A stretch of DNA of 34,188 nt, taken from a virus. A program made the position numbers and the translations under genes. The notes below the pieces were generated by a model, which was not told where the DNA came from, made no database searches, and saw nothing but the letters and a program-made list of their open reading frames with translations. Numbering within the stretch: position 1 is the first letter of the stretch; each line of letters starts with the position of its first letter. The DNA lies in IMG/VR virus record IMGVR_UViG_3300035034_000050, positions 1 through 34,188 of that record. The stretch is one strand, 5' to 3'. Shown piece by piece: positions 22,073 through 32,838 of this stretch.

Positions 22073-25000
22073 ATGGCGCGCAAGGATGTCGATCTCGTAA
22101 TCCGCGCCAAGGACGAAGCTGAAAAAGTCGTTAAATCAATCACGACGGCGATCAACGACTTCTCCGAGGCGCAGAAGAATCTGACCGCGAAAGCGGACAA
22201 AACGGAAAACTCGATGCAGGCCCTCGGGGCCGCTTTCGGGCAGTTCCAGAAAGACCTCCGGGGCGGAAACGCTGCGGAGGTTTTGGCGTCTACGCTGGGC
22301 AAGGCGAACACCGCTGTCGAGCGTTTGGAGAAGTCCGTCAAAGGGACGCGCGGAGAAGTCAAACGGCTCGATAGCGACTTCAAGTCGTCCTCGGCGGGCG
22401 TCGAGACCCTGCGCCAACGGGTTGCCGGGGCGGCCAAGGCCCTCGCCGACGGCAAGACATCCCTGAAGAAATACAAGAACGATCTCGCGAAAACGAAGAA
22501 AGAGGCTACTGCGCTGGCAGCAGCCGAAGCGAAGCTGAACGTCTCCGGGATCGAGAAGCGGCTGGAAGCCAAAGCTGCGGCTGCGGCCAAGACCGAGGCC
22601 CGGATCGCAGAACTGCGTCGTCAGATCGGGGGCATGGATACCCCGACAAAGCGGCTGACCTCATCCCTCGAAACCAATACCGCCAAGCTGGCTCGTCAGG
22701 CCGACGAGAGCGATAAGCTGGCGGCATCTCTCGTTCGGGCGCGCACCGAGCAGGCTGGGCTTGCCGCGAAGATGGGCGACACGGCGAACAAGATCAAAGC
22801 CAGCACGGCAGCGATCAAGAAGCAGGAAGGTATCGTCGCGGGTCTCGGGTCTGACTACCAGAAGGTCGTCACCGAGACCAAGGCCGCCGAGAAGGCGAAC
22901 GCTGATCTCGGCAAGGCGCTCGACAAGTCGAACAACGTCCTCGCCCGGCAGGATTCCCAACTCAACAAAGCCAAAGTAGAACTGAAGCAGTTCGCCGCGA
23001 CCAGCCAGCAGGCAGAGGCCGCGTTGAAGGAACTCTCGGCTGCCGGAGCCAAAGGTCTTCGCCTTGAGATCGGGACGCAAGCCCGCGCCGCGAAAGAAGC
23101 CAAGGTTCAGTTCGATGCACTGGCGAAAGAGACAAACGAACTGGCCGCCAAGATGGGCCGGGTCGGCGTCCCTACGCGCCAGATGGTCCAAGACTTTGAG
23201 CGCCTGAAGATTGAGTCCAAAGGGGCCAAGGCCGAGTTCCTGACGCAGCGCAACACGCTGGGCCAGCTTCGGCAAGTCTACCGGGAAGCCGGGACGGATG
23301 TTAATTCGCTGGCGACGGCGCAGGCCCGGTTCGTGGGTCTCCAAGGGCAAGCCGGGACGGCCATTCAGACGGCTCGGGCTAAGACAGACCAAAGCGTAGC
23401 CAGCCTGAACCAACTCCATGCGGGATACCAGAAGGCCGGGACGGCAGCAGGCGCTCTGGCCCAGAAGACTCGTTCGGGCGTGGCCGCGCAAAAACGGGAA
23501 CTCACGGTCAGTCAGCAACTCGCTCGGGCCTACCGGAACATCTATGGCGAGAAGCGCAAGGCCCTGTCGCTCACCCAGCGTCTCCGGGGCAACGTGCTGT
23601 CGCTCGTGGCGGCCTACGGCGGCCTGTATGGCGTGATCGACATCCTCCGGCGCGTTGTGGACGCCTATCAGCAGGTCGAGGCCGCGCAGGCCCGCCTCAA
23701 CGTCGCCTTTGACGGCGATATGGATGTGGTCGCGCAGGAGATGGACTATCTGCGCCGCAACGCGGAACGGTTGGGCGTAGAGTTCGGCGCGCTCGCCGGG
23801 GAATACTCCAAGTTCGCCATCGCCACCAAGAATACCGCGATTGAGGGGGGGCCAGCCCGGCGTCTGTTTATGCAGATCGCAGAGGCGGCCCGCGTCAACC
23901 GTTCCTCTATGGAGGAAATGAAGGGCGTCTTCGTCGCCGTCACCCAGATCGTGTCGAAGGGCGCGGTCCAGATGGAAGAATTGCGCCAGCAGCTTGGCGA
24001 CCGTCTCCCCGGTGCGCTGCAACTCATGGCCGACGGCCTCAACGTCACGACCGCAGAACTCATCAAAATGATGGAGCAGGGCCAAGTCACGGCGGAAGCC
24101 TTGGTCCCCTTCGGGAACGAACTCGAAAAACGCTTCGGCCCGCAACTCGCTGAGAGCCTTCAGTCGACGGCAGCCGAGATGGGCCGCCTCGAAAACGCTT
24201 CGTTCCAAGCCCTGAAGACCTTCGGCGAGGCCGGGTTCATCGACTCCTTCACGGACCTGATGCGGACCCTGACGGAGACCCTTCAGTCTGCGGACGCCGA
24301 AGCCTTTATCTCGCGCCTATCGGAGGCTTTTGCGTCCTTGTTGGACGTGATCGGGTTCGTCGCCAGCAACTTCCAACTGGTAGCGGCAGCAGCCGGGGCC
24401 TTTGTCGGGATCAAGTTGGTCCCTTTTGTTTTGGCCCTGTTTACCGGGTTCAAAAACCTCCGCACCGCGCTTATCGCGTCCAATGTGGCTATGGGGGCCA
24501 CGCAAGCCCGTGCGGCCACTATGGGCGTCTCCGTGGGCCGGGCCGCGATTGCGGTGCGCGGCCTGTCCCTTGCGTTCAAGGGGATGTTGTCGTCGACCGG
24601 GCTCGGGCTGGCCCTAGTCGCCGTCTCTACGGCTATCGGGTATTGGTCGACGCAAGCGGATCGGGCCACCGAGGCCATGAACTACCACCGTGGGATCGTA
24701 GACGATGTAAAGAACGCTTACGACGCCGCCGGAGAGTCTTCGGAAAATTGGGCGGATACGATCACGCGCGTCACATCGCAACAGGCTGAAGCAAACCTTC
24801 GGACTCTGGAAAACCAACTTCAGGCAACGCGCCGGGACGCCATCATCGCGCCTCTCGCCATCGAGAACCTTTACGAGCCTACGATTGGCGGCTTGGAAGA
24901 AACCCGGATTAAGTTGCGCGAATTGGCAAACGAGTTCCGTAATGGCAATTTGACAGTCGATGAATACAAGGCTGGTCTGGAAGAACTCGCGGACGTAGAC

Positions 25001-27088
25001 CCGACTCTTGATCGCGACTTCATCCTGTCACTCCAAGACGCTGCGGATGGCGTTCGCGGCCTCGAAATCTCGGTGCGTGAAGCCGAGTTGATCTTTATCG
25101 CGCTGACGGGGACCACGGAAGAAGCAGCGGCAGCGTTGCGTGAACTTCGTTACGGGGCCGAGGATTCGAGGGACGCCATAGACACCGGGGCTGCGGCCAC
25201 CGAGAGGTTCAATGCGGCGATGGAAGCACTCCGGGAAACACTCCCGGAAGCAGCCTCCGAGATGTCCAAGCTGGAACAGGAGACGGCGAAGATCGAAGGG
25301 GCGCTGCAACAGGCGCTTATTGCCGCCCGCGCCCTGCCAGACGCCATCATGCGGATCGCTGCGGAGCAAGAGGCTCTGGCAGCCGCGAACCAAGGTCTCA
25401 TGGACCTGACGCAAGCGGCAGTCGATGCCAAATTCGGACGGTTCACGGATAGCACGGAAGCGGCCTCGGCCTTGATTCGGCAGTTTGAGGGTTTCCGGGA
25501 AACCCCGTATTGGGATGTCAATGCGCTCCGGGCGGGCTACGGCTCGGATACAGTTACGTTGGCCGACGGGTCTGTCCAGAAGATCGTCGCCGGGATGCGG
25601 GTATCGGTGGCCGACGGCAACCGGGACTTGGCGCGTCGGATCACGACCGAGTTCATGCCCGCAGCACGGGCCGCAGTCGGGGGCGAACGCTTTGATACCT
25701 TCACGGCGCAGCAGAAAGCCGCCCTGACATCCATTGCATATAACTACGGCAGCATCCCAGACAGGATCGTCGAAGCCCTGCGCACGGGGTCCAATGAACA
25801 GATCGCCAACGCGATTCGGGGCCTCGGTGGGGACAACGCTGGGATCAACCGGGGTCGTCGGAACCAAGAAGCCGCCCTGTTCACGTCGACCGCAGCCACG
25901 GATACGGCAGCGCGCGAGCAAGAGCGCGAAGCCTCGCGTCTGGCCGATGAGGCCGAACGCCGGGCCGAAGCTGTCCGGGACTTCCACGACGCCACGGCAG
26001 CCGGGATCGAGCAGCAGCAGTTTGAGTTGTCCATCGCGGACCAGCAGCTTGTCGCCCGCGAGCAGGCCAAGGCCATTCGAGATGCCGAGTTGGCCGCCCA
26101 AGAGGCCGGGACCGTGCTTACGGAGCAGGAACGTCAGGCGATCCTCGCCAACGTCGAAGCCAAGTTCCGCCAGCAGCAGATCGACGAGAACACGGCGGAC
26201 TCGGCAGAACGTCGGGCCGATGCGGAGGAACGGGTCAATCAGCTTCTTGGATACCGGGATTCCTTGAAGACCCAGCTTGACGCTGCGGTCGAAGGTGGGG
26301 ACACCGAGAAGGCCGAGGAACTGCGCGCCAAGATTGAAGAAATCAACGGCCAGCTTGAATCCGCGATCACCAACGCCCAGAACATGTGGTCGGCGGTCGG
26401 CGGTGAGCAAGGGGACGCTGCGGTCGCCCGCCTTGAAGCCCTGCGGATCAAGTCTGCCGAGTTCGGCCAAGAGGCTGAAAACGCTTACTTCTCTTGGAAG
26501 AAAGTCGGTGATCTCCTGATGAATGGGCTGGCTTCGGCCTTCGACACGTTCGCCAAGGGTATCGCCGAAGGTAAGTCGGCGTCCGAGGCCGCGCGCGATG
26601 CCTTCTTGCAGTTTGCCGCAGACTTCCTGCGCCAGATCGCACAGATGATTATCAAGCAGGCAATCTTCAACGCCCTCAAAGGGACCGGGATTGGCAACTT
26701 CCTCGGGATCGGGGTGGCCCACGCGGGCGGCCGGGTCGGCTCCAAGCGGGCCGGGTCCGGCAACGCGGGGCGTAAGGTCAACCCGGCGGTGTTCAACGGA
26801 GCCATGCGCTACCACGTTGGCGGGATGCCGGGCCTGCGTCCGGGAGAGGTTCCGATCATCGCCAAAAAGAACGAAGAAGTTCTGACACGCGACGACCCAC
26901 GCCACATCCTGAACAGCGGGAAGGCCAGCGGGTCCGGCGGGTCCGGCAAGACCTTGAACGCGAAGATCGTGAACGCTATCGACGCGCCGTCCTTCCTCGA
27001 AGCGGCCTTGAACAGCCCTGAAGGGGAGCGGGTCTTCTTGAACTTCATGCGGGCAAACCAGAACGCGGTATCGGGGGCAGTATTCTAA
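22073..27088 (+). CDS. Tail tape measure protein with embedded GH24 lysozyme domain
   Basis: A 1671-residue protein. Residues 1-460 are alanine/lysine/glutamate-rich coiled coil. Hydrophobic segments lie at about 506-526, 767-793 and 843-858, suitable for inner-membrane channel formation during ejection. Residues about 1130-1275 form a T4-type lysozyme domain: E1139 in QFEGF, D1148 nine residues later (the T4L E11/D20 distance), then RAGYGSDT; the usual catalytic-site Thr is not in place. A second coiled coil and a conserved C-terminal VAHAGGRVG segment follow. It sets tail length and the lysozyme part probably opens peptidoglycan on entry. At about 1.5 angstrom per residue the tail would be near 0.2-0.25 micrometre. 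AAGAGG precedes the ATG. Confidence 0.92.
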   Translation: MARKDVDLVIRAKDEAEKVVKSITTAINDFSEAQKNLTAKADKTENSMQALGAAFGQFQKDLRGGNAAEVLASTLGKANTAVERLEKSVKGTRGEVKRLDSDFKSSSAGVETLRQRVAGAAKALADGKTSLKKYKNDLAKTKKEATALAAAEAKLNVSGIEKRLEAKAAAAAKTEARIAELRRQIGGMDTPTKRLTSSLETNTAKLARQADESDKLAASLVRARTEQAGLAAKMGDTANKIKASTAAIKKQEGIVAGLGSDYQKVVTETKAAEKANADLGKALDKSNNVLARQDSQLNKAKVELKQFAATSQQAEAALKELSAAGAKGLRLEIGTQARAAKEAKVQFDALAKETNELAAKMGRVGVPTRQMVQDFERLKIESKGAKAEFLTQRNTLGQLRQVYREAGTDVNSLATAQARFVGLQGQAGTAIQTARAKTDQSVASLNQLHAGYQKAGTAAGALAQKTRSGVAAQKRELTVSQQLARAYRNIYGEKRKALSLTQRLRGNVLSLVAAYGGLYGVIDILRRVVDAYQQVEAAQARLNVAFDGDMDVVAQEMDYLRRNAERLGVEFGALAGEYSKFAIATKNTAIEGGPARRLFMQIAEAARVNRSSMEEMKGVFVAVTQIVSKGAVQMEELRQQLGDRLPGALQLMADGLNVTTAELIKMMEQGQVTAEALVPFGNELEKRFGPQLAESLQSTAAEMGRLENASFQALKTFGEAGFIDSFTDLMRTLTETLQSADAEAFISRLSEAFASLLDVIGFVASNFQLVAAAAGAFVGIKLVPFVLALFTGFKNLRTALIASNVAMGATQARAATMGVSVGRAAIAVRGLSLAFKGMLSSTGLGLALVAVSTAIGYWSTQADRATEAMNYHRGIVDDVKNAYDAAGESSENWADTITRVTSQQAEANLRTLENQLQATRRDAIIAPLAIENLYEPTIGGLEETRIKLRELANEFRNGNLTVDEYKAGLEELADVDPTLDRDFILSLQDAADGVRGLEISVREAELIFIALTGTTEEAAAALRELRYGAEDSRDAIDTGAAATERFNAAMEALRETLPEAASEMSKLEQETAKIEGALQQALIAARALPDAIMRIAAEQEALAAANQGLMDLTQAAVDAKFGRFTDSTEAASALIRQFEGFRETPYWDVNALRAGYGSDTVTLADGSVQKIVAGMRVSVADGNRDLARRITTEFMPAARAAVGGERFDTFTAQQKAALTSIAYNYGSIPDRIVEALRTGSNEQIANAIRGLGGDNAGINRGRRNQEAALFTSTAATDTAAREQEREASRLADEAERRAEAVRDFHDATAAGIEQQQFELSIADQQLVAREQAKAIRDAELAAQEAGTVLTEQERQAILANVEAKFRQQQIDENTADSAERRADAEERVNQLLGYRDSLKTQLDAAVEGGDTEKAEELRAKIEEINGQLESAITNAQNMWSAVGGEQGDAAVARLEALRIKSAEFGQEAENAYFSWKKVGDLLMNGLASAFDTFAKGIAEGKSASEAARDAFLQFAADFLRQIAQMIIKQAIFNALKGTGIGNFLGIGVAHAGGRVGSKRAGSGNAGRKVNPAVFNGAMRYHVGGMPGLRPGEVPIIAKKNEEVLTRDDPRHILNSGKASGSGGSGKTLNAKIVNAIDAPSFLEAALNSPEGERVFLNFMRANQNAVSGAVF

Positions 27089-28683
27089 TGGCGATCATTT
27101 TTCCCTACGAGCCGGATTGGTCCTCCGGCGTCGAGATGAGCCGTGAATACAAGACGGAGATCATCGAGTCCCGGAACCTGACGGAGCAGCGCAAGGCGCA
27201 ACGCTCGCAGCCCCGGCGCACGGTCAGTTTTGACGTGAAGTCCCACGCCCGTCGCGGTGAGGACATCATCGAGTATCTGGAAGACAAAGCGCAGGAGCCG
27301 TTCTGGCTCCCAGACCCCACGCGCGCTGCCCTCATGGGCGAGGCGGCCCAGATCGGGGACGATAAGTTCGTGGTCAAAGGGTCCAACACACCGTTCTGGC
27401 TGAAGGCTGGGGCCAAGGTTATTTTGGGCCGGGGGACAGACGCCCTGAAGGAACTAGCGACCGTGGCGAGCGTGGATGGAGACGCGATCACCTTGGAAGA
27501 CCCTACGGCCTACGAGTGGCCCGCGAATACGCTTGTCCGCATGGCTATGCTCGGTCGCTTGGAGCAAGAGTTGGCCACGCGCTGGGTGACGACGACAACA
27601 GGCGGCATAACCTTCACCTTCTTGGAGGACCCGAACGACACCTACGAGGAAGTCTACCGCAGCCAACGGAACGACCGCTGGTATGACGGCAGAGAACTCT
27701 GGCTCCGCAAGCCCAACTGGCGCGAGCCTGTGGACGCGGGAATCCAAGGATACCTGACCACGCTGTCGTTCGACCGTGGCGTCTTCGACCACCGGGCCGC
27801 GCAACCGTTCAACACGCGCACATGGGCTGCGACATACTCCGGCATGTCCTCGGATGCGGCGGAAGAACTGATCCAGTTTGCCCACCGAAAGCGGGGTCGT
27901 AGGCACTCGTTCTGGATGCCGACTTGGCGGGACGACATGGAGTTGGCCGGGGAATCTCTGTCGGGGACAAATACGCTCACGGCCAACGGGACTGTTGTTT
28001 TTGACAGGCACGACGGTTCGGTCCACATGAATCGGGTCATCGTCTTCTTTGCCGACGGGACCCATGAGTGCAACACGGTCGACTCGATGGCGAAAGCCCT
28101 CGGGAACACAGTAATCACGATGAAGAATAATTGGTCAGCAGACCTGACCTATTCTCGGGTCCGCCAGATTTGCTGGCTCCCGCTCTGGCGCATGGCGACG
28201 GATAAGCTGACGATGCTCTGGCCGACCAGCCGGGTAGGGGAAGCCAAGGTCGCGATCCAACAGGTCCGGGCCTACCAAGCTGTCGGCGATGGGTATTTTC
28301 CGATCACCACGGCGGAGGACAACGGGACGCATACCTACGACATGCGCGGCTACGGCTTTATCTCTACGGGGGATGTCCTCGGATCGCTCGGGCTGCATTG
28401 GTCCACCGAGGCTAAGAAGATCAGCGACGGTATGGATGCAGAGGCCCTGCTACGGGTGACGGTTAAGTTCTACACCGAAGTTCTCGGCGCTCTCGGGGAC
28501 CAGATCGGCGCGACGATCACGCACGAGATCACCGCGTCTGGCGACGTGTCTTTGGATTTTGTCGATGACATCCCGGCCCGTTCAGCGTATGTCAAACTAA
28601 CTTATACGAAAACAGCGACGTTGCCGGGTGACACGGCCTACGAAAATGTCGTGGACACCGTGACGTTTAGGGGTAAGCCATAA
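27088..28683 (+). CDS. Distal tail protein-like (lambda gpM position)
   Basis: A 531-residue protein that overlaps the tape measure stop by one base. The start, IIFPYEPDWSSGVEMSREYKTEI with a following QRKAQRSQPRRTVSFDV, has the pattern of siphophage distal tail proteins: strands that bind the tail tube, with a paired QR-rich strand. A similar motif returns near residue 255 (AAEELIQFAHRKRGRRHSFWMPTWRDD). The rest is beta-rich. It probably caps the tube and connects it to the hub. It is longer than lambda gpM, so added receptor or carbohydrate domains are possible. Confidence 0.7.
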   Translation: MAIIFPYEPDWSSGVEMSREYKTEIIESRNLTEQRKAQRSQPRRTVSFDVKSHARRGEDIIEYLEDKAQEPFWLPDPTRAALMGEAAQIGDDKFVVKGSNTPFWLKAGAKVILGRGTDALKELATVASVDGDAITLEDPTAYEWPANTLVRMAMLGRLEQELATRWVTTTTGGITFTFLEDPNDTYEEVYRSQRNDRWYDGRELWLRKPNWREPVDAGIQGYLTTLSFDRGVFDHRAAQPFNTRTWAATYSGMSSDAAEELIQFAHRKRGRRHSFWMPTWRDDMELAGESLSGTNTLTANGTVVFDRHDGSVHMNRVIVFFADGTHECNTVDSMAKALGNTVITMKNNWSADLTYSRVRQICWLPLWRMATDKLTMLWPTSRVGEAKVAIQQVRAYQAVGDGYFPITTAEDNGTHTYDMRGYGFISTGDVLGSLGLHWSTEAKKISDGMDAEALLRVTVKFYTEVLGALGDQIGATITHEITASGDVSLDFVDDIPARSAYVKLTYTKTATLPGDTAYENVVDTVTFRGKP

Positions 28684-29507
28684 TGGATGATGAAGCCTTC
28701 TGGGGCGAGCCAGTCGAACTCTACCTGTTTGAGACGGGCGATTCGACATACTACGCCTACACCGACGGGGAACGGGCGATCACGCTCGGCGGGAAGACCT
28801 ATGAGCCGATCCCGATTGAGCGGGGGCGTATCACGTCCTCCGCCGGGCTGGATAAGACGCAGATGAAAGTCACCGTCCCGCTCTCGGCCCAGATTGCAGA
28901 AATCTTCCGCACATACCCGCCGGGCTTCAAGGTGAGCCTGAAGGTTTTCGCAGGGCATGTGAACGACCACGACCAGAAGTTCAACGCGGTATGGGTCGGT
29001 CGCGTGTTGCAGTGCAGCCGGGAGAACACCAGCGGCGGCGTCGAGAGAGCCGTGCTGTCGTGCGAACCTGCGTCCACAACGATGCGCCAGAGCGGCCTGC
29101 GCCGTAACTGGCAGCTATCCTGCCCGCACGTCCTCTACGGCGCGCTCTGCGGGGCCTCCGAGGCCGTTGCGACTACGAGTCATACCGTCGTGGACATGGG
29201 CGGAACATGGATCGAACTGGCCCCGGATTGGGAGGGCCCTATCCCTCGTAACAAATTCCGGGCGGGGAAGGTCAAATGGGACGGGGACTTCGGGAAGGAA
29301 CAGAGAATGATCTTGGGGACAGAAGGGGCGGTGACGCTTCAGTTGGCCGGGCCGACATCGGCTCTCAACATCGGAGACACGGTAGAAGTCGCTCTCGGGT
29401 GCAATCGGCTCCGGGGCGACTGCACGGACCTGCACGACAACATCGTGAACTTCGGGGGCCAGCCTTGGATTCCCACGGAGAACCCGATCAACAAGTCGCA
29501 GATTTGA
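28683..29507 (+). CDS. Tail hub protein, DUF2163/gpL-like, with four-cysteine Fe-S motif
   Basis: A 274-residue protein with the layout of the DUF2163/BR0599 hub family used by gene transfer agents and many alphaproteobacterial phages. The N-terminal beta domain is followed by CPHVLYGALC and by GCNRLRGDC-TDLHDNIVNFGGQPWIP at the end. Cysteines C147-x8-C156 and C240-x6-C247 have the spacing I recall for the iron-sulfur-binding lambda gpL family. It sits in the baseplate ring below the distal tail protein. Its ATG overlaps the previous stop by one base. Confidence 0.82.
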   Translation: MDDEAFWGEPVELYLFETGDSTYYAYTDGERAITLGGKTYEPIPIERGRITSSAGLDKTQMKVTVPLSAQIAEIFRTYPPGFKVSLKVFAGHVNDHDQKFNAVWVGRVLQCSRENTSGGVERAVLSCEPASTTMRQSGLRRNWQLSCPHVLYGALCGASEAVATTSHTVVDMGGTWIELAPDWEGPIPRNKFRAGKVKWDGDFGKEQRMILGTEGAVTLQLAGPTSALNIGDTVEVALGCNRLRGDCTDLHDNIVNFGGQPWIPTENPINKSQI

Positions 29508-29508
29508 C

Positions 29509-29751
29509 ATGATTGGCTGGTTCGCAACCCTCCTGATCGGGATCGCCCTGAACATTGTGGCATACCTCATCATGCCGAAGCCGAAGGCCCCCCAGCCACC
29601 GGAGACGAAGGACATGGATAGTCCGACAAACTCTACGGGTTCCCCGATCATGGTGATCTGGGGGTCCCCGAGAATCAAAGGGCTGAACATCCTGCACTCG
29701 ACAAACAAGTTGACCGTGAAGAAGACCTACAAAGAGGGCGGCAAGAAATGA
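29509..29751 (+). CDS. Small tail-tip protein with N-terminal hydrophobic helix; possible hub N-terminal piece
   Basis: An 80-residue protein. Residues 2-21 (IGWFATLLIGIALNIVAYLI) form one hydrophobic helix, followed by a proline-rich linker and then PIMVIWGSPRIKGLNILHSTN and a lysine/glycine tail. The last segment resembles the first strands of large phage central hub proteins (pattern: small residue-rich, IPV-F-G-R-I-G-NI), which usually stay joined to a YYL-LALCHGP segment. Here that second segment starts the large protein at 29941. So this may be a detached hub N-terminus. The membrane-like helix may be an assembly or ejection element. Function is not proven. Confidence 0.65.
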   Translation: MIGWFATLLIGIALNIVAYLIMPKPKAPQPPETKDMDSPTNSTGSPIMVIWGSPRIKGLNILHSTNKLTVKKTYKEGGKK

Positions 29752-29957
29752 TTAAAGTTCGTCCTGAAGACGGCTTCAAGGCGGGTCTTTGCATCTCCGG
29801 GCAGCGCCGTTTTTTGACGCGCCACAACTTCGACTTCCGGGAGTTCGTCCGGGATGGGATCGACATCGAGAGATTCCGTGCGATAAAGGATGGAAACTTG
29901 GAGCGCGCGATCAAAGCCGCTGAAGCACGGGAGGCTGACAATGGGCGGCGGCGGTAA
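29748..29957 (+). CDS. Small conserved-looking tail-region protein, function unknown
   Basis: A 69-residue basic/acidic protein whose ATG overlaps the previous stop (ATGA) and whose end overlaps the central hub gene by 17 bp. The pattern GLCISGQRRFLTRHNFDFREFVRDGI followed by FRAIKDGNLERAIKAA resembles small proteins I recall next to hub genes in other siphophages. It sits in the place of lambda gpK/gpI but has no cysteine-peptidase motif. It probably helps tail-tip assembly; this is inference from position. Confidence 0.7.
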   Translation: MIKVRPEDGFKAGLCISGQRRFLTRHNFDFREFVRDGIDIERFRAIKDGNLERAIKAAEAREADNGRRR

Positions 29958-32838
29958 GGGTAAAACCGAATATCAGGTTGCGGAATACTACCTGACTTTG
30001 GACTACGGCGTTTGTCATGGTCCCCTCGATTCCTTGAACGGCATCTGGGTCAAAGAGAAGCTGGTCTGGGAAGGCCACATCTCGCGGACCTCGACGCTGG
30101 CGATCAACGCGCTTGACGCTTTCGGTGGCAAGAAGAAAGAAGGGGGGGTTGCCGGGACCGTGGATGTCTACATGGGCGACTCGGATCAGCTAATGACCGC
30201 AGCGTCGGCTTCCCGGTATGGCCTGACCCCGACCACAATGCCCGGATACCGGGGCATCGCCCACCTGATGTTCCGGGGCAACGCGGACGACCAAGGCTTT
30301 CTGTGGGTGATGAACAACCCATACCTGCCCCCGACGTGGCTGGACGTGACCCGTATCCCGAAGGGCTGGCAAGACCACTTGTCCGCGATCCCTCGCGGGG
30401 ACATTGGCGACCGTTCGATCTACTTCTTGTTGGACAGATCACAGTCTTTGTCGGGAAGCCAGTTCAACACGATCAAAAATTCCGTTCGGGATAGTTTGGA
30501 CTTCATCGAATTGGCGATCTCGTTGGGCAACAAGATCGACCTCGGAGTCCGGTTCTGGTCCTCCGGCGTTGGTGATGTGTCCATCGAACGCACGGATGTC
30601 ACATCGACCGACATCGACGAGATCAGGGCGTTCATTGACTCCACGGGCCAGCTTTTCGGGGGCGATGTCGTCCCGGCCTATACGGCTGCCGAGACGTGGT
30701 TCCAGACGACCAAGAACGACGACTTGGCGGGGCGCTCGATCATTCTCGTGACGGACGCAGCCTCGAACGACGGCTTTAGTTCTGCGGCCTCCGGCCCGGC
30801 GGCGGACATGCTGGACCAAAACAGCGGAGAGTTCAGCAAGGCGAATGGGAACCCGGTCGACCTCTACGCCATCAACTACAATCAGGCCAACACGACCTTT
30901 ACAGCACAACTCGACAACACCACGCAGGATGGGGTCCCGGTCATCTCGGGGTCCGACACGCAAGGGCTGTCGAACGCTGTCCGGCGCGCGATCCTGTCAG
31001 GGCTAGTGTTGGACGCGAACCCGTCGCACATGATCCGGGAGTGCCTGACGAACGACGATTGGGGCCTTGGAGTCCCTGACGCGGACATCGGGGACAGTTT
31101 CATCTACGCGGCGGAGGTCCTGATCTCGGAAGGCTTCGGGCTGACTATGATGTGGACCCAACAGTCTGCCGTAGAGAAGTTCGTGCAAGAGGTCTGCGAT
31201 CACATTCAGGGCATGGTCTATCTGGACCCTGAAACGGGCCTCTGGGAGATCGTCTTGATCCGGGGCGACTATGACCTCGACGAGTGCATCACGCTCGACC
31301 CGTCGAACTGCACGGCCAACAACAGGCAGCGCAAGGCGATGTCCGAGACCAGCAATGAGATCGTCATCACATACACGGACCCAGACAACGGCGAAGACAC
31401 GTCGATCACGTTCCAAGACATTGCGAACATCGCCATGCAGGGCGGTATCAGGTCAGAGACTCGGGGCTACTACGGCGTCCGGTATTCCCGGCTCGCCCAA
31501 TTCATTGGGGGCCGCGATCTCCGGTCGGCCAGCTATCCGACGTTCTCATGCGACCTCGTAGCCAATACGCGCGCCGGGGCCGTAAAGCCCGGTCAGGTGG
31601 TCAAGTTCTCGTGGCCGGACGACGGGATCGTCGACATGCCTTTGCGGGTCTACAAGGTAGACTACGGCCAGCCGGGCGACTCGAAGATGAAGCTGACCGT
31701 CACCGAAGACATCTTTGGCCTCGGGCAGACGACATACGACCCGGTTGATCCAACAGCGTGGGACGGCATCCAACCTGAACCTATGCCCCTCGAAACGATC
31801 TCGATCACCACGACGCCGCTGCCCTTGCTCCTGCGCTCGGGCATGGCTTTGACCGACGTGGATGACGACGACTACCCGAGCGTCAGGATGACCGTCTTGG
31901 GTAACACGGCGGATCAGCCCATAGACACGATCATCCTGTGGGGGGAAGTGACGAAGCCGAACGGGTCGGTCGCGGTCGAGACCTTGGCCGAATTGCAGTC
32001 CACGCCTCTGGGAGCCTTGGAAGTCGCACTACCTCGGGAAGCCATGTCGACCCTCACGGGCGGCGAGATTCGCCGGATCACCGGGCTTCTCGCAGAACCG
32101 GAGGAAGGGGACTTCTACCAGATCGGGCTAGGCGACGACACGAGCGAGATCGTAATGCTTTACGCATACGACGACGGCGACGATGGGTATCAGGTCGCGC
32201 GCGGCATGTTCGACACGACGCCAAAGGCTTGGGTGATCGGGGACCCTATCTGGTTCCTGAACGATAGCCTGATCCAGATCGAGCCGTCGGAACATGCCTC
32301 GGGAACTGCGTCTTTCTATGAGGTCCAGACGACCAACTCCGGGGGGGTTCTCGACGAAGCCTTTATGACGACCGAGACCTTCACGCCCACGGATCGGCCT
32401 TACGCGCCGCACCGCCCAGCGGACGGGGGGATCGAAGGGAACGGCTTTGCCGAGGCCAGCTACACGGAGGCTGGGGCGTCCACGGTTCCGTCGTCCCTGA
32501 CTGTGACGTGGGCCAACCGGAATAGGTTCGATGAGGACACGGTGCCTCCGCTCTGGGGCGGCACAACAGTCACGCCTGAAGTCGGACAGACGACGACGAT
32601 CAAGGTCTGCAATCGCAGCGACGGCACGGTTGTTCACGAGTATTCCGGCATCGCAGAAGGGGCTACCACGTTCGAGATCGTGCCGGATGACTTCTTGAAC
32701 GCAGAGAGATATATCGACGTGAAGCTGTATGCTGTTCGAGACAGTATCGAATCAGTCCAACCCACCGTTCTCCTGCTCGATATTGAGCGCGTTGGCTACG
32801 GACGCAATTACGGGTATAGCTACGGTGCGCCCAGCTAA
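29941..32838 (+). CDS. Central tail hub/fibre protein (gpJ-like) with inserted von Willebrand A domain
   Basis: A 965-residue protein. Residues 1-150 have the hub pattern (YYLTLDYGVCHGPLDSLNGIWV, FGGKKKEGGVAG, GYRGIAHLMF). Residues about 158-360 are a complete vWA domain: DRSQS metal-site motif (D165, S167, S169), GGDVVPAYTAAE second loop, and ILVTDAASN with D272. After the insertion the hub resumes with NPSHMIRECLTNDDWGLG and the Phage-tail_3-like part ending VTEDIFGL (to about 600). The C-terminal 350 residues are beta-rich fibre or fibronectin-like domains. GGGAGG lies 6 nt before ATG 29941; an in-frame ATG at 29890 lies inside the previous gene and lacks one. It probably organises the tail tip and contacts the cell surface. 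Confidence 0.88.
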   Translation: MGGGGKGKTEYQVAEYYLTLDYGVCHGPLDSLNGIWVKEKLVWEGHISRTSTLAINALDAFGGKKKEGGVAGTVDVYMGDSDQLMTAASASRYGLTPTTMPGYRGIAHLMFRGNADDQGFLWVMNNPYLPPTWLDVTRIPKGWQDHLSAIPRGDIGDRSIYFLLDRSQSLSGSQFNTIKNSVRDSLDFIELAISLGNKIDLGVRFWSSGVGDVSIERTDVTSTDIDEIRAFIDSTGQLFGGDVVPAYTAAETWFQTTKNDDLAGRSIILVTDAASNDGFSSAASGPAADMLDQNSGEFSKANGNPVDLYAINYNQANTTFTAQLDNTTQDGVPVISGSDTQGLSNAVRRAILSGLVLDANPSHMIRECLTNDDWGLGVPDADIGDSFIYAAEVLISEGFGLTMMWTQQSAVEKFVQEVCDHIQGMVYLDPETGLWEIVLIRGDYDLDECITLDPSNCTANNRQRKAMSETSNEIVITYTDPDNGEDTSITFQDIANIAMQGGIRSETRGYYGVRYSRLAQFIGGRDLRSASYPTFSCDLVANTRAGAVKPGQVVKFSWPDDGIVDMPLRVYKVDYGQPGDSKMKLTVTEDIFGLGQTTYDPVDPTAWDGIQPEPMPLETISITTTPLPLLLRSGMALTDVDDDDYPSVRMTVLGNTADQPIDTIILWGEVTKPNGSVAVETLAELQSTPLGALEVALPREAMSTLTGGEIRRITGLLAEPEEGDFYQIGLGDDTSEIVMLYAYDDGDDGYQVARGMFDTTPKAWVIGDPIWFLNDSLIQIEPSEHASGTASFYEVQTTNSGGVLDEAFMTTETFTPTDRPYAPHRPADGGIEGNGFAEASYTEAGASTVPSSLTVTWANRNRFDEDTVPPLWGGTTVTPEVGQTTTIKVCNRSDGTVVHEYSGIAEGATTFEIVPDDFLNAERYIDVKLYAVRDSIESVQPTVLLLDIERVGYGRNYGYSYGAPS

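What the first reader, a model, noticed from the sequence alone, without database searches (positions are those of the whole stretch)
29509..30060. Central hub N-terminus apparently split, with a small gene between the pieces
From memory, many hub proteins of this type run an N-terminal strand block (IPV-x-G-x-R-I-x-x-NI) directly into a YYL-x-ALCHGP block. Here the first block closes the 80-residue protein at 29509 and the second opens the 965-residue protein at 29941, with a 69-residue gene overlapping both. All three overlap, so they are translated as a coupled unit. The first piece also gained a membrane-like helix. It may be a real two-chain hub rather than a decay product.
Basis: inference. 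Interest (0 to 1): 0.55.

Follow-up and report, generated by a model that had tools for sequence, protein, structure and literature searches.

The report
Separate plug chain of phage tail
Three overlapping phage genes encode a tail tip whose channel plug is its own short protein rather than part of the big hub protein; this is a normal design already seen in phages Chi and lambda, with one still unexplained little gene that is missing where plug and hub are fused.

Summary
The 80-aa protein (P1) and the 965-aa hub match adjacent parts of single-chain hubs: in phage Kakheti25 gp26, P1 aligns to residues 2-73 and the hub N-domain to 81-183 of one 813-aa virion protein. But "split" is the ordinary state: P1, a 69-aa gene (P2) and a separate hub occur in this order in 163 of 163 informative loci and 74 of 78 P1-bearing loci of a second survey. 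Fused hubs arise at two places in the tree. P1's hydrophobic helix is conserved and kept in fused hubs, so it was not gained. P1 is homologous to a chain of the solved Chi tail tip (8VJH) and to the C-terminal half of lambda gpI, the channel plug. So this is a two-chain hub with a detached plug: a known kind. New here: P2, a predicted five-helix protein without PDB match, was found in 6 of 6 split and 0 of 11 fused records, suggesting that it serves the detached plug. Side finding: a VWA domain inserted in the hub.

The parts
28683..29507 (+). Upper hub protein, lambda gpL / JBD30 gp50 counterpart (274 aa; phrog_778, Phage_BR0599); cysteines 147, 156, 240, 247 in nearly the spacing of the JBD30 metal site (147, 156, 238, 245)
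   Evidence: JBD30 residues from passages of PMC11445458
29509..29751 (+). P1: separate plug/insertion chain (80 aa), homologue of Chi 'Tail assembly protein 1' and of the C-terminal half of lambda gpI
29515..29574 (+). Hydrophobic helix segment of P1 (about residues 3-22), iris/plug part
   Evidence: hydropathy in 119 of 119 distinct P1; sequence; exact limits are inference
29638..29694 (+). Strand block of P1 (residues 44-62), in the stretch aligned to lambda gpI 140-202
   Evidence: alignment
29734..29738 (+). GAGGG, Shine-Dalgarno-like box for P2
   Evidence: sequence; inference
29748..29957 (+). P2: 69-aa protein (phrog_1196), predicted five helices, invariant Cys15
29929..29934 (+). GGGAGG, Shine-Dalgarno-like box for the hub, inside P2
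   Evidence: sequence; inference
29941..32838 (+). Hub / central fibre protein (965 aa; phrog_1101; fold of lambda gpJ, Chi hub, JBD30 gp53)
29941..30279 (+). Hub N-domain (follows P1 directly in fused hubs; place of the adhesin-like domain of megatron)
30400..31008 (+). VWA domain inserted in the hub (residues 154-356; DRSQS metal motif at residues 165-169)
31003..31740 (+). Hub central domain (Phage-tail_3)

Best explanation
P1 is the channel plug (insertion protein / iris) of a lambda-type siphophage tail tip, made as its own short chain and built into a trimeric two-chain hub with the 965-aa gpJ-like protein. Its strands pair with the hub, its hydrophobic helix closes the channel under the tape measure protein until receptor binding opens the cone, and the helix then leaves the lumen and probably enters the outer membrane. 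P2, made in the same coupled unit, most likely escorts the free plug chain into the hub during assembly and is not needed when plug and hub are one chain. Shown here: homology, gene order, conservation, adjacency to fused hubs, absence of P2 in fused records. Taken from the literature on lambda, T1 and RcGTA: plug position and opening. Inferred: the same for this phage, and the role of P2 (for P2 alone I would say 0.35 to 0.4).
For: The Chi-type P1 counterpart aligns end to end, with no mismatch in the printed alignment, to chain 8vjh_U of the solved tail tip; window P1 hits the same chain at E 0.0057. The P1 profile aligns to lambda gpI 138-203, score 27.9 against at most 16.6 for 50 shuffled gpI and at most 15.8 for lambda M, L, K, J. 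gpI 135-223 is a trimeric tripod plug paired to gpJ by strand augmentation (PMC10721106, passages), its helices leave the lumen on opening (PMC11101478, passages), and the T1 authors say a similar feature is seen in lambda and Chi (PMC11945409, passages). Fused hubs carry P1 then hub N-domain in one chain: Kakheti25 2-73 and 81-183, DoCa1 alike, four contigs, four more. RcGTA and R4C megatron residues 1-46 and 1-45 are an iris/penetration domain before the adhesin-like domain (PMC7296036, PMC10276861, passages). Order P1, P2, hub in 163 of 163 informative loci (128 distinct, 76 clusters at 70% identity). P2 found in 6 of 6 split and 0 of 11 fused records.
Against: hhalign probabilities to lambda gpI are only moderate (68.8% with 5 rows, 41.8% with the larger profile). 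The direct megatron hits are weak (E 0.11). The JBD30 structure did not model the two small proteins; gp51 and gp52 are not mentioned in its main text. I could not read the Chi paper nor inspect 8VJH coordinates, so the P1-hub contact is by homology. P2 may be absent in fused phages only because a deletion that fuses P1 to the hub must remove it. P1 lacks the N-terminal half of gpI.
Confidence: 0.85

Rival explanations
1. P1 and P2 are non-virion assembly chaperones, as their PHROG and RefSeq labels say, and the 965-aa protein alone is the hub.
For: phrog_1180 and phrog_1196 are both labelled tail assembly chaperone, as are the SPN19 genes; the JBD30 paper calls uncoloured ORFs of that segment non-structural and its text does not mention gp51 or gp52.
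Against: The Chi P1 counterpart is a chain of the solved tail tip; P1 is part of a hub that the Kakheti25 record notes as found by mass spectrometry in virions; lambda gpI is in the virion. For P2 the label remains possible.
Confidence: 0.07
2. P2 has no role tied to the plug; it is a small accessory gene that any P1-hub fusion by deletion removes in passing.
For: P2 lies between P1 and hub, so a fusion by deletion must remove it (P1-hit to hub-hit distance: median 447 nt in split, 222-234 nt in fused loci); P2 is the least constrained of the three (dN/dS 0.19).
Against: P2 was in all 163 and all 74 split loci, is still under purifying selection, has an invariant cysteine, and was not moved elsewhere in the fused records (0 of 11), as one might expect of a gene essential for something else.
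Confidence: 0.4
3. The arrangement is a broken full-length hub (decay product) in this one phage.
For: Single-chain hubs do exist.
Against: Same three genes, same order, in 163 of 163 and 74 of 78 loci, all under purifying selection.
Confidence: 0.02

Closest known systems
Phage Chi tail tip (PDB 8VJH; Chivirus SPN19 and YSD1 gene order)
   Same: Separate short P1 chain in the tip, P2-like gene between, gpJ-like hub
   Different: SPN19 hub 27% identical to the window hub, and without VWA insert; P2 not found among PDB sequences
Phage lambda gpL-gpK-gpI-gpJ (8IYK, 8K35)
   Same: Plug made as a chain separate from J; P1 matches gpI 138-203; hub fold matches gpJ
   Different: gpI has an extra N-terminal half; no P2 match in the lambda tail genes; gpK peptidase lies between L and I
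Septimatrevirus central tail hub (Kakheti25 gp26)
   Same: Same P1 and hub N-domain, collinear
   Different: One chain, no P2 found anywhere in the record
RcGTA / roseophage R4C megatron
   Same: N-terminal iris/penetration helix followed by adhesin-like domain; weak adjacent profile hits
   Different: One chain; in RcGTA the gene before megatron (g14) is a peptidase
Phage T5 pb3
   Same: Plug and hub domains in one tip (PMC10721106 passages); fold hit 7zhj
   Different: Plug inserted inside one hub chain
JBD30 (Casadabanvirus) baseplate
   Same: Closest hub fold (8rk3, Z 28.7); JBD16C, also a Casadabanvirus, has P1 and P2 genes
   Different: P1 and P2 counterparts not mentioned in the structure paper's text

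Membership tests
Insertion/plug protein (lambda gpI, T1 gp34, Chi Tail assembly protein 1) | Gene between gpL-like and gpJ-like genes | tested here: met
   BR0599/phrog_778 protein at 28683-29507 before, gpJ-like hub after
Insertion/plug protein (lambda gpI, T1 gp34, Chi Tail assembly protein 1) | Hydrophobic helix then strand block matching the gpI C-terminal part | tested here: met
   gpI 138-203, score 27.9 vs shuffles up to 16.6; hydrophobic stretch in 119 of 119 distinct P1
Insertion/plug protein (lambda gpI, T1 gp34, Chi Tail assembly protein 1) | N-terminal half as in lambda gpI | tested here: not met
   P1 is 80 aa and matches only gpI 138-203; so it is filed as a relative of the gpI C-terminal half and of Chi Tail assembly protein 1 (76 aa), not as a full gpI
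Insertion/plug protein (lambda gpI, T1 gp34, Chi Tail assembly protein 1) | Trimer inside the virion tip channel | not testable with these tools
   Only by homology to 8vjh_U
phrog_1180 / phrog_1196 / phrog_1101 | Profile match | tested here: met
   8.5e-17 (3-78 of 78), 3e-17 (59-123 of 128), 7e-188 (74-814 of 1405). The unmatched start of phrog_1196 may reflect over-extended gene starts such as B3ORF55 (inference)
Single-chain hub (Septimatrevirus type) | P1 and hub N-domain in one open frame | tested here: not met
   Separate genes with stops between them in the shared frame
RcGTA megatron | NCBIfam NF048004 above its cut-off | tested here: not met
   P1 and hub 10.2 bits each, cut-off 800; the adjacency 39-99 and 96-139 is suggestive only
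VWA domain | VWA fold with DxSxS metal motif | tested here: met
   Z about 20 to VWA structures, rmsd 2.3-2.6 over about 175-185 residues of the predicted model; DRSQS; Pfam 0.0013, below its curated cut-off

The most novel reading that the evidence does not exclude
P2 is a dedicated escort for a free-standing tail plug: an obligate third member of two-chain hubs (in the loci surveyed, split and P2 always together, fusion and P2 absence always together, with two separate fusions in one family), binding the hydrophobic plug chain P1 until it is threaded into the hub trimer. That would be a plug-specific assembly chaperone; I recall none described, and searches listed none by title.
Probability: 0.35. 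Interest if true: 0.5.

Novelty: new member of a known kind. Interest (0 to 1): 0.3.

Why it matters
It shows that the channel plug of siphophage tails can be a separate chain or the head of the hub chain within one family, and that public labels (tail assembly chaperone) hide a plug conserved across the 76 clusters (70% identity) of the first survey. The strict pairing of P2 with the separate plug gives a simple genetic test of what P2 does.

Tried and rejected
Decay: rejected by the surveys. Readthrough fusion of P1 with the hub: further stops in the P1 frame before the hub. P1-P2 fusion, suggested by a 151-aa phage B3 protein among the fold hits: the B3 record shows ORF55 drawn from a start inside ORF54 in another frame, so an over-extended start (inference). 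P2 against lambda M, L, K, I, J: no match. P2 fold against PDB: 0 matches with E up to 10, and so nothing for the second look; against viral models 20 matches, 12 of them with probability 1.00, all unnamed or uncharacterised phage proteins. The hub VIA list is filled largely by VWA structures for residues 154-356; families not listed there are not excluded. Scan with Dolichocephalovirinae hubs: 23 loci, 21 below the hub threshold and 2 without P1 hit, so uninformative; in the two named records of that group P1 scored only 0.005 and 0.006, so their fused state is less sure than for Septimatrevirus. Dropped or odd rows: L023 and L105 (contig ends), L224 (P2 but no P1; other sequence upstream) and L233 (truncated). 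Conserved lysine end of P1: only 74 of 129, not pursued. Papers on a hub VWA domain or a plug chaperone: searches listed none by title; of those lists I opened only papers named above, by passages.

Full report
What is there. Three genes follow one another at 29509-29751, 29748-29957 and 29941-32838. They lie in a siphophage tail module: tape measure 22073-27088, DUF2460-type protein 27088-28683, BR0599-type protein 28683-29507, P1, P2, hub. The window is a virus record of 34188 bases. P1, P2 and hub N-domain are identical in two IMG/VR contigs.

Do the two pieces match adjacent parts of a full-length hub? Yes. Using profiles built from P1, P2, the hub N-domain (1-113) and the hub central domain (355-600), Pseudomonas phage Kakheti25 gp26 has P1 at 2-73 (1.2e-14), the hub N-domain at 81-183 (9.8e-23) and the central domain at 219-458 (3.8e-67) in one 813-aa chain; the hub of Xanthomonas phage DoCa1 is alike. 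PHROG profiles agree: Kakheti25 gp26 hits phrog_1180 over 1-73 and phrog_1101 over 1-812. The Kakheti25 record notes gp26 as found by mass spectrometry in mature virions. Fused hubs keep the hydrophobic helix at their N-terminus. Hits of P1 and hub to positions 39-99 and 96-139 of the GTA megatron model point the same way but are not significant alone (E 0.11 each).

Which state is usual? First survey (the loci, four annotated phage records, lambda and the window, 166 sources): 163 have P1, P2 and hub N-domain, and in all 163 P1 and hub are separate with P2 found as well. L023 and L105 end too soon, and lambda gave no hit. The 163 are 128 distinct triples; these form 97, 76 and 17 clusters at 90, 70 and 50% identity. 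P1 and P2 overlap by exactly 4 nt in 136 of 163; P2 overlaps the hub start by 1-20 nt in 159 of 163. Second survey: of 80 loci from a scan with Chi-, JBD-, Klebsiella-, Rhodobacter-, Vibrio- and Septimatrevirus-type hubs, 74 are split with P2 (66 distinct), 4 are fused without P2, 1 has P2 without P1 and 1 is truncated. A scan with two Septimatrevirus hubs gave 5 loci, 4 fused without P2 and 1 split with P2. Only the best 80 of 558, 129 and 587 confirmed relatives were kept, so rarer layouts may be missed, and the P1-based scan favours whatever has a P1.

Direction. In a tree of 79 hub domain sequences the two fused types (Septimatrevirus; the type of contig L242) need two changes, and the starred branches force two; the L242 type sits in a group of 30 (support 100) with 29 split members. 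An earlier tree of 81 rows without that type gave one change. The root is at the midpoint for drawing only, and both are short searches without bootstrap. Within this family split is therefore the likely older state and fusion happened at least twice (inference); deeper, lambda and T1 are split while megatron-type hubs are fused, so the first state is open.

What P1 does. Its Chi-type counterpart is a chain of the solved Chi tail tip. Its profile matches lambda gpI 138-203 and none of the other four lambda tail proteins tested. gpI forms a trimeric tripod in the lumen, paired with gpJ by strands, under the tape measure coiled coil; on receptor binding the plug loosens and its helices leave (passages of PMC10721106 and PMC11101478). 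In RcGTA and R4C the N-terminal helix of megatron makes an iris and may enter the outer membrane (passages of PMC7296036 and PMC10276861). The membrane step is a proposal of those authors. For this phage all of it is by homology.

What P2 does. It is a real gene (dN/dS 0.19 over 485 pairs; invariant Cys15 in alignments of 84 and 81 rows). AlphaFold2 gives five helices with mean pLDDT 85.7, with no PDB fold match. No PDB sequence is a credible relative, also when asked with the Chi-type counterpart. A profile search of 17 whole records found it in 6 of 6 split records and 0 of 11 fused ones: Kakheti25, DoCa1, Marchewka, Colossus and seven contigs of 11.7 to 43 kb, some of which may be fragments. 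So it seems lost, not moved. The functional reading I prefer is an escort of the free plug chain; the plain rival is that fusing P1 to the hub removes the gene between them in passing.

Hub. The AlphaFold2 model (62 rows, pLDDT 88.7) matches the JBD30 and Chi hubs (Z 28.7 and 28.6) and lambda gpJ (Z 20.4). Residues 154-356 are a VWA domain between N-domain and central domain, where megatron has its peripheral domain.

Verdict. Observation right; two-chain hub right; split-from-fused and gained-helix wrong. An ordinary member of a known kind with a testable small gene.

Noticed in passing
window 30400-31008 (hub residues 154-356): A VWA domain with DxSxS metal motif is inserted in the tail hub. 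A motif-bearing insert was seen in 52 of 157 hub loci (42 of 121 distinct inserts); Pfam VWA models hit 7 of 7 motif-bearing and 0 of 3 other hubs tested; 6 changes of state on the tree. It sits in the slot of the megatron peripheral domain, so it may be a host-surface adhesion module (inference).
   Followed up: partly
window 28683-29507 and hub 29941-32838: phrog_15205 matches both the VWA part of the hub (profile 43-218) and the BR0599 protein (profile 225-466), so the VWA module seems to ride on different tip proteins in different phages.
   Followed up: no
window 22073-27088 (residues 1137-1248 of 1671): The tape measure protein holds a phage lysozyme domain (Pfam 1.8e-06, above its cut-off).
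   Followed up: partly
L181:14601-15056 (phage B3 ORF55): The public gene start of the P2 counterpart runs back through most of the P1 gene in another frame; likely over-extended, and perhaps the reason why phrog_1196 is 128 positions long.
   Followed up: partly
window 29509-29751 (phrog_1180) and L003:4539-4769: P1 is labelled tail assembly chaperone in PHROGs and in the SPN19 record, although the same protein is a chain of the solved Chi tail tip.
   Followed up: yes
L224:2300-3007: Contig with hub and P2 but with a regulator-like frame in place of P1; looks like a recombinant or degraded prophage edge.
   Followed up: no
L242, L250, L255, L257: A second, separate lineage of P1-hub fusion in uncultured phages, without P2.
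   Followed up: yes
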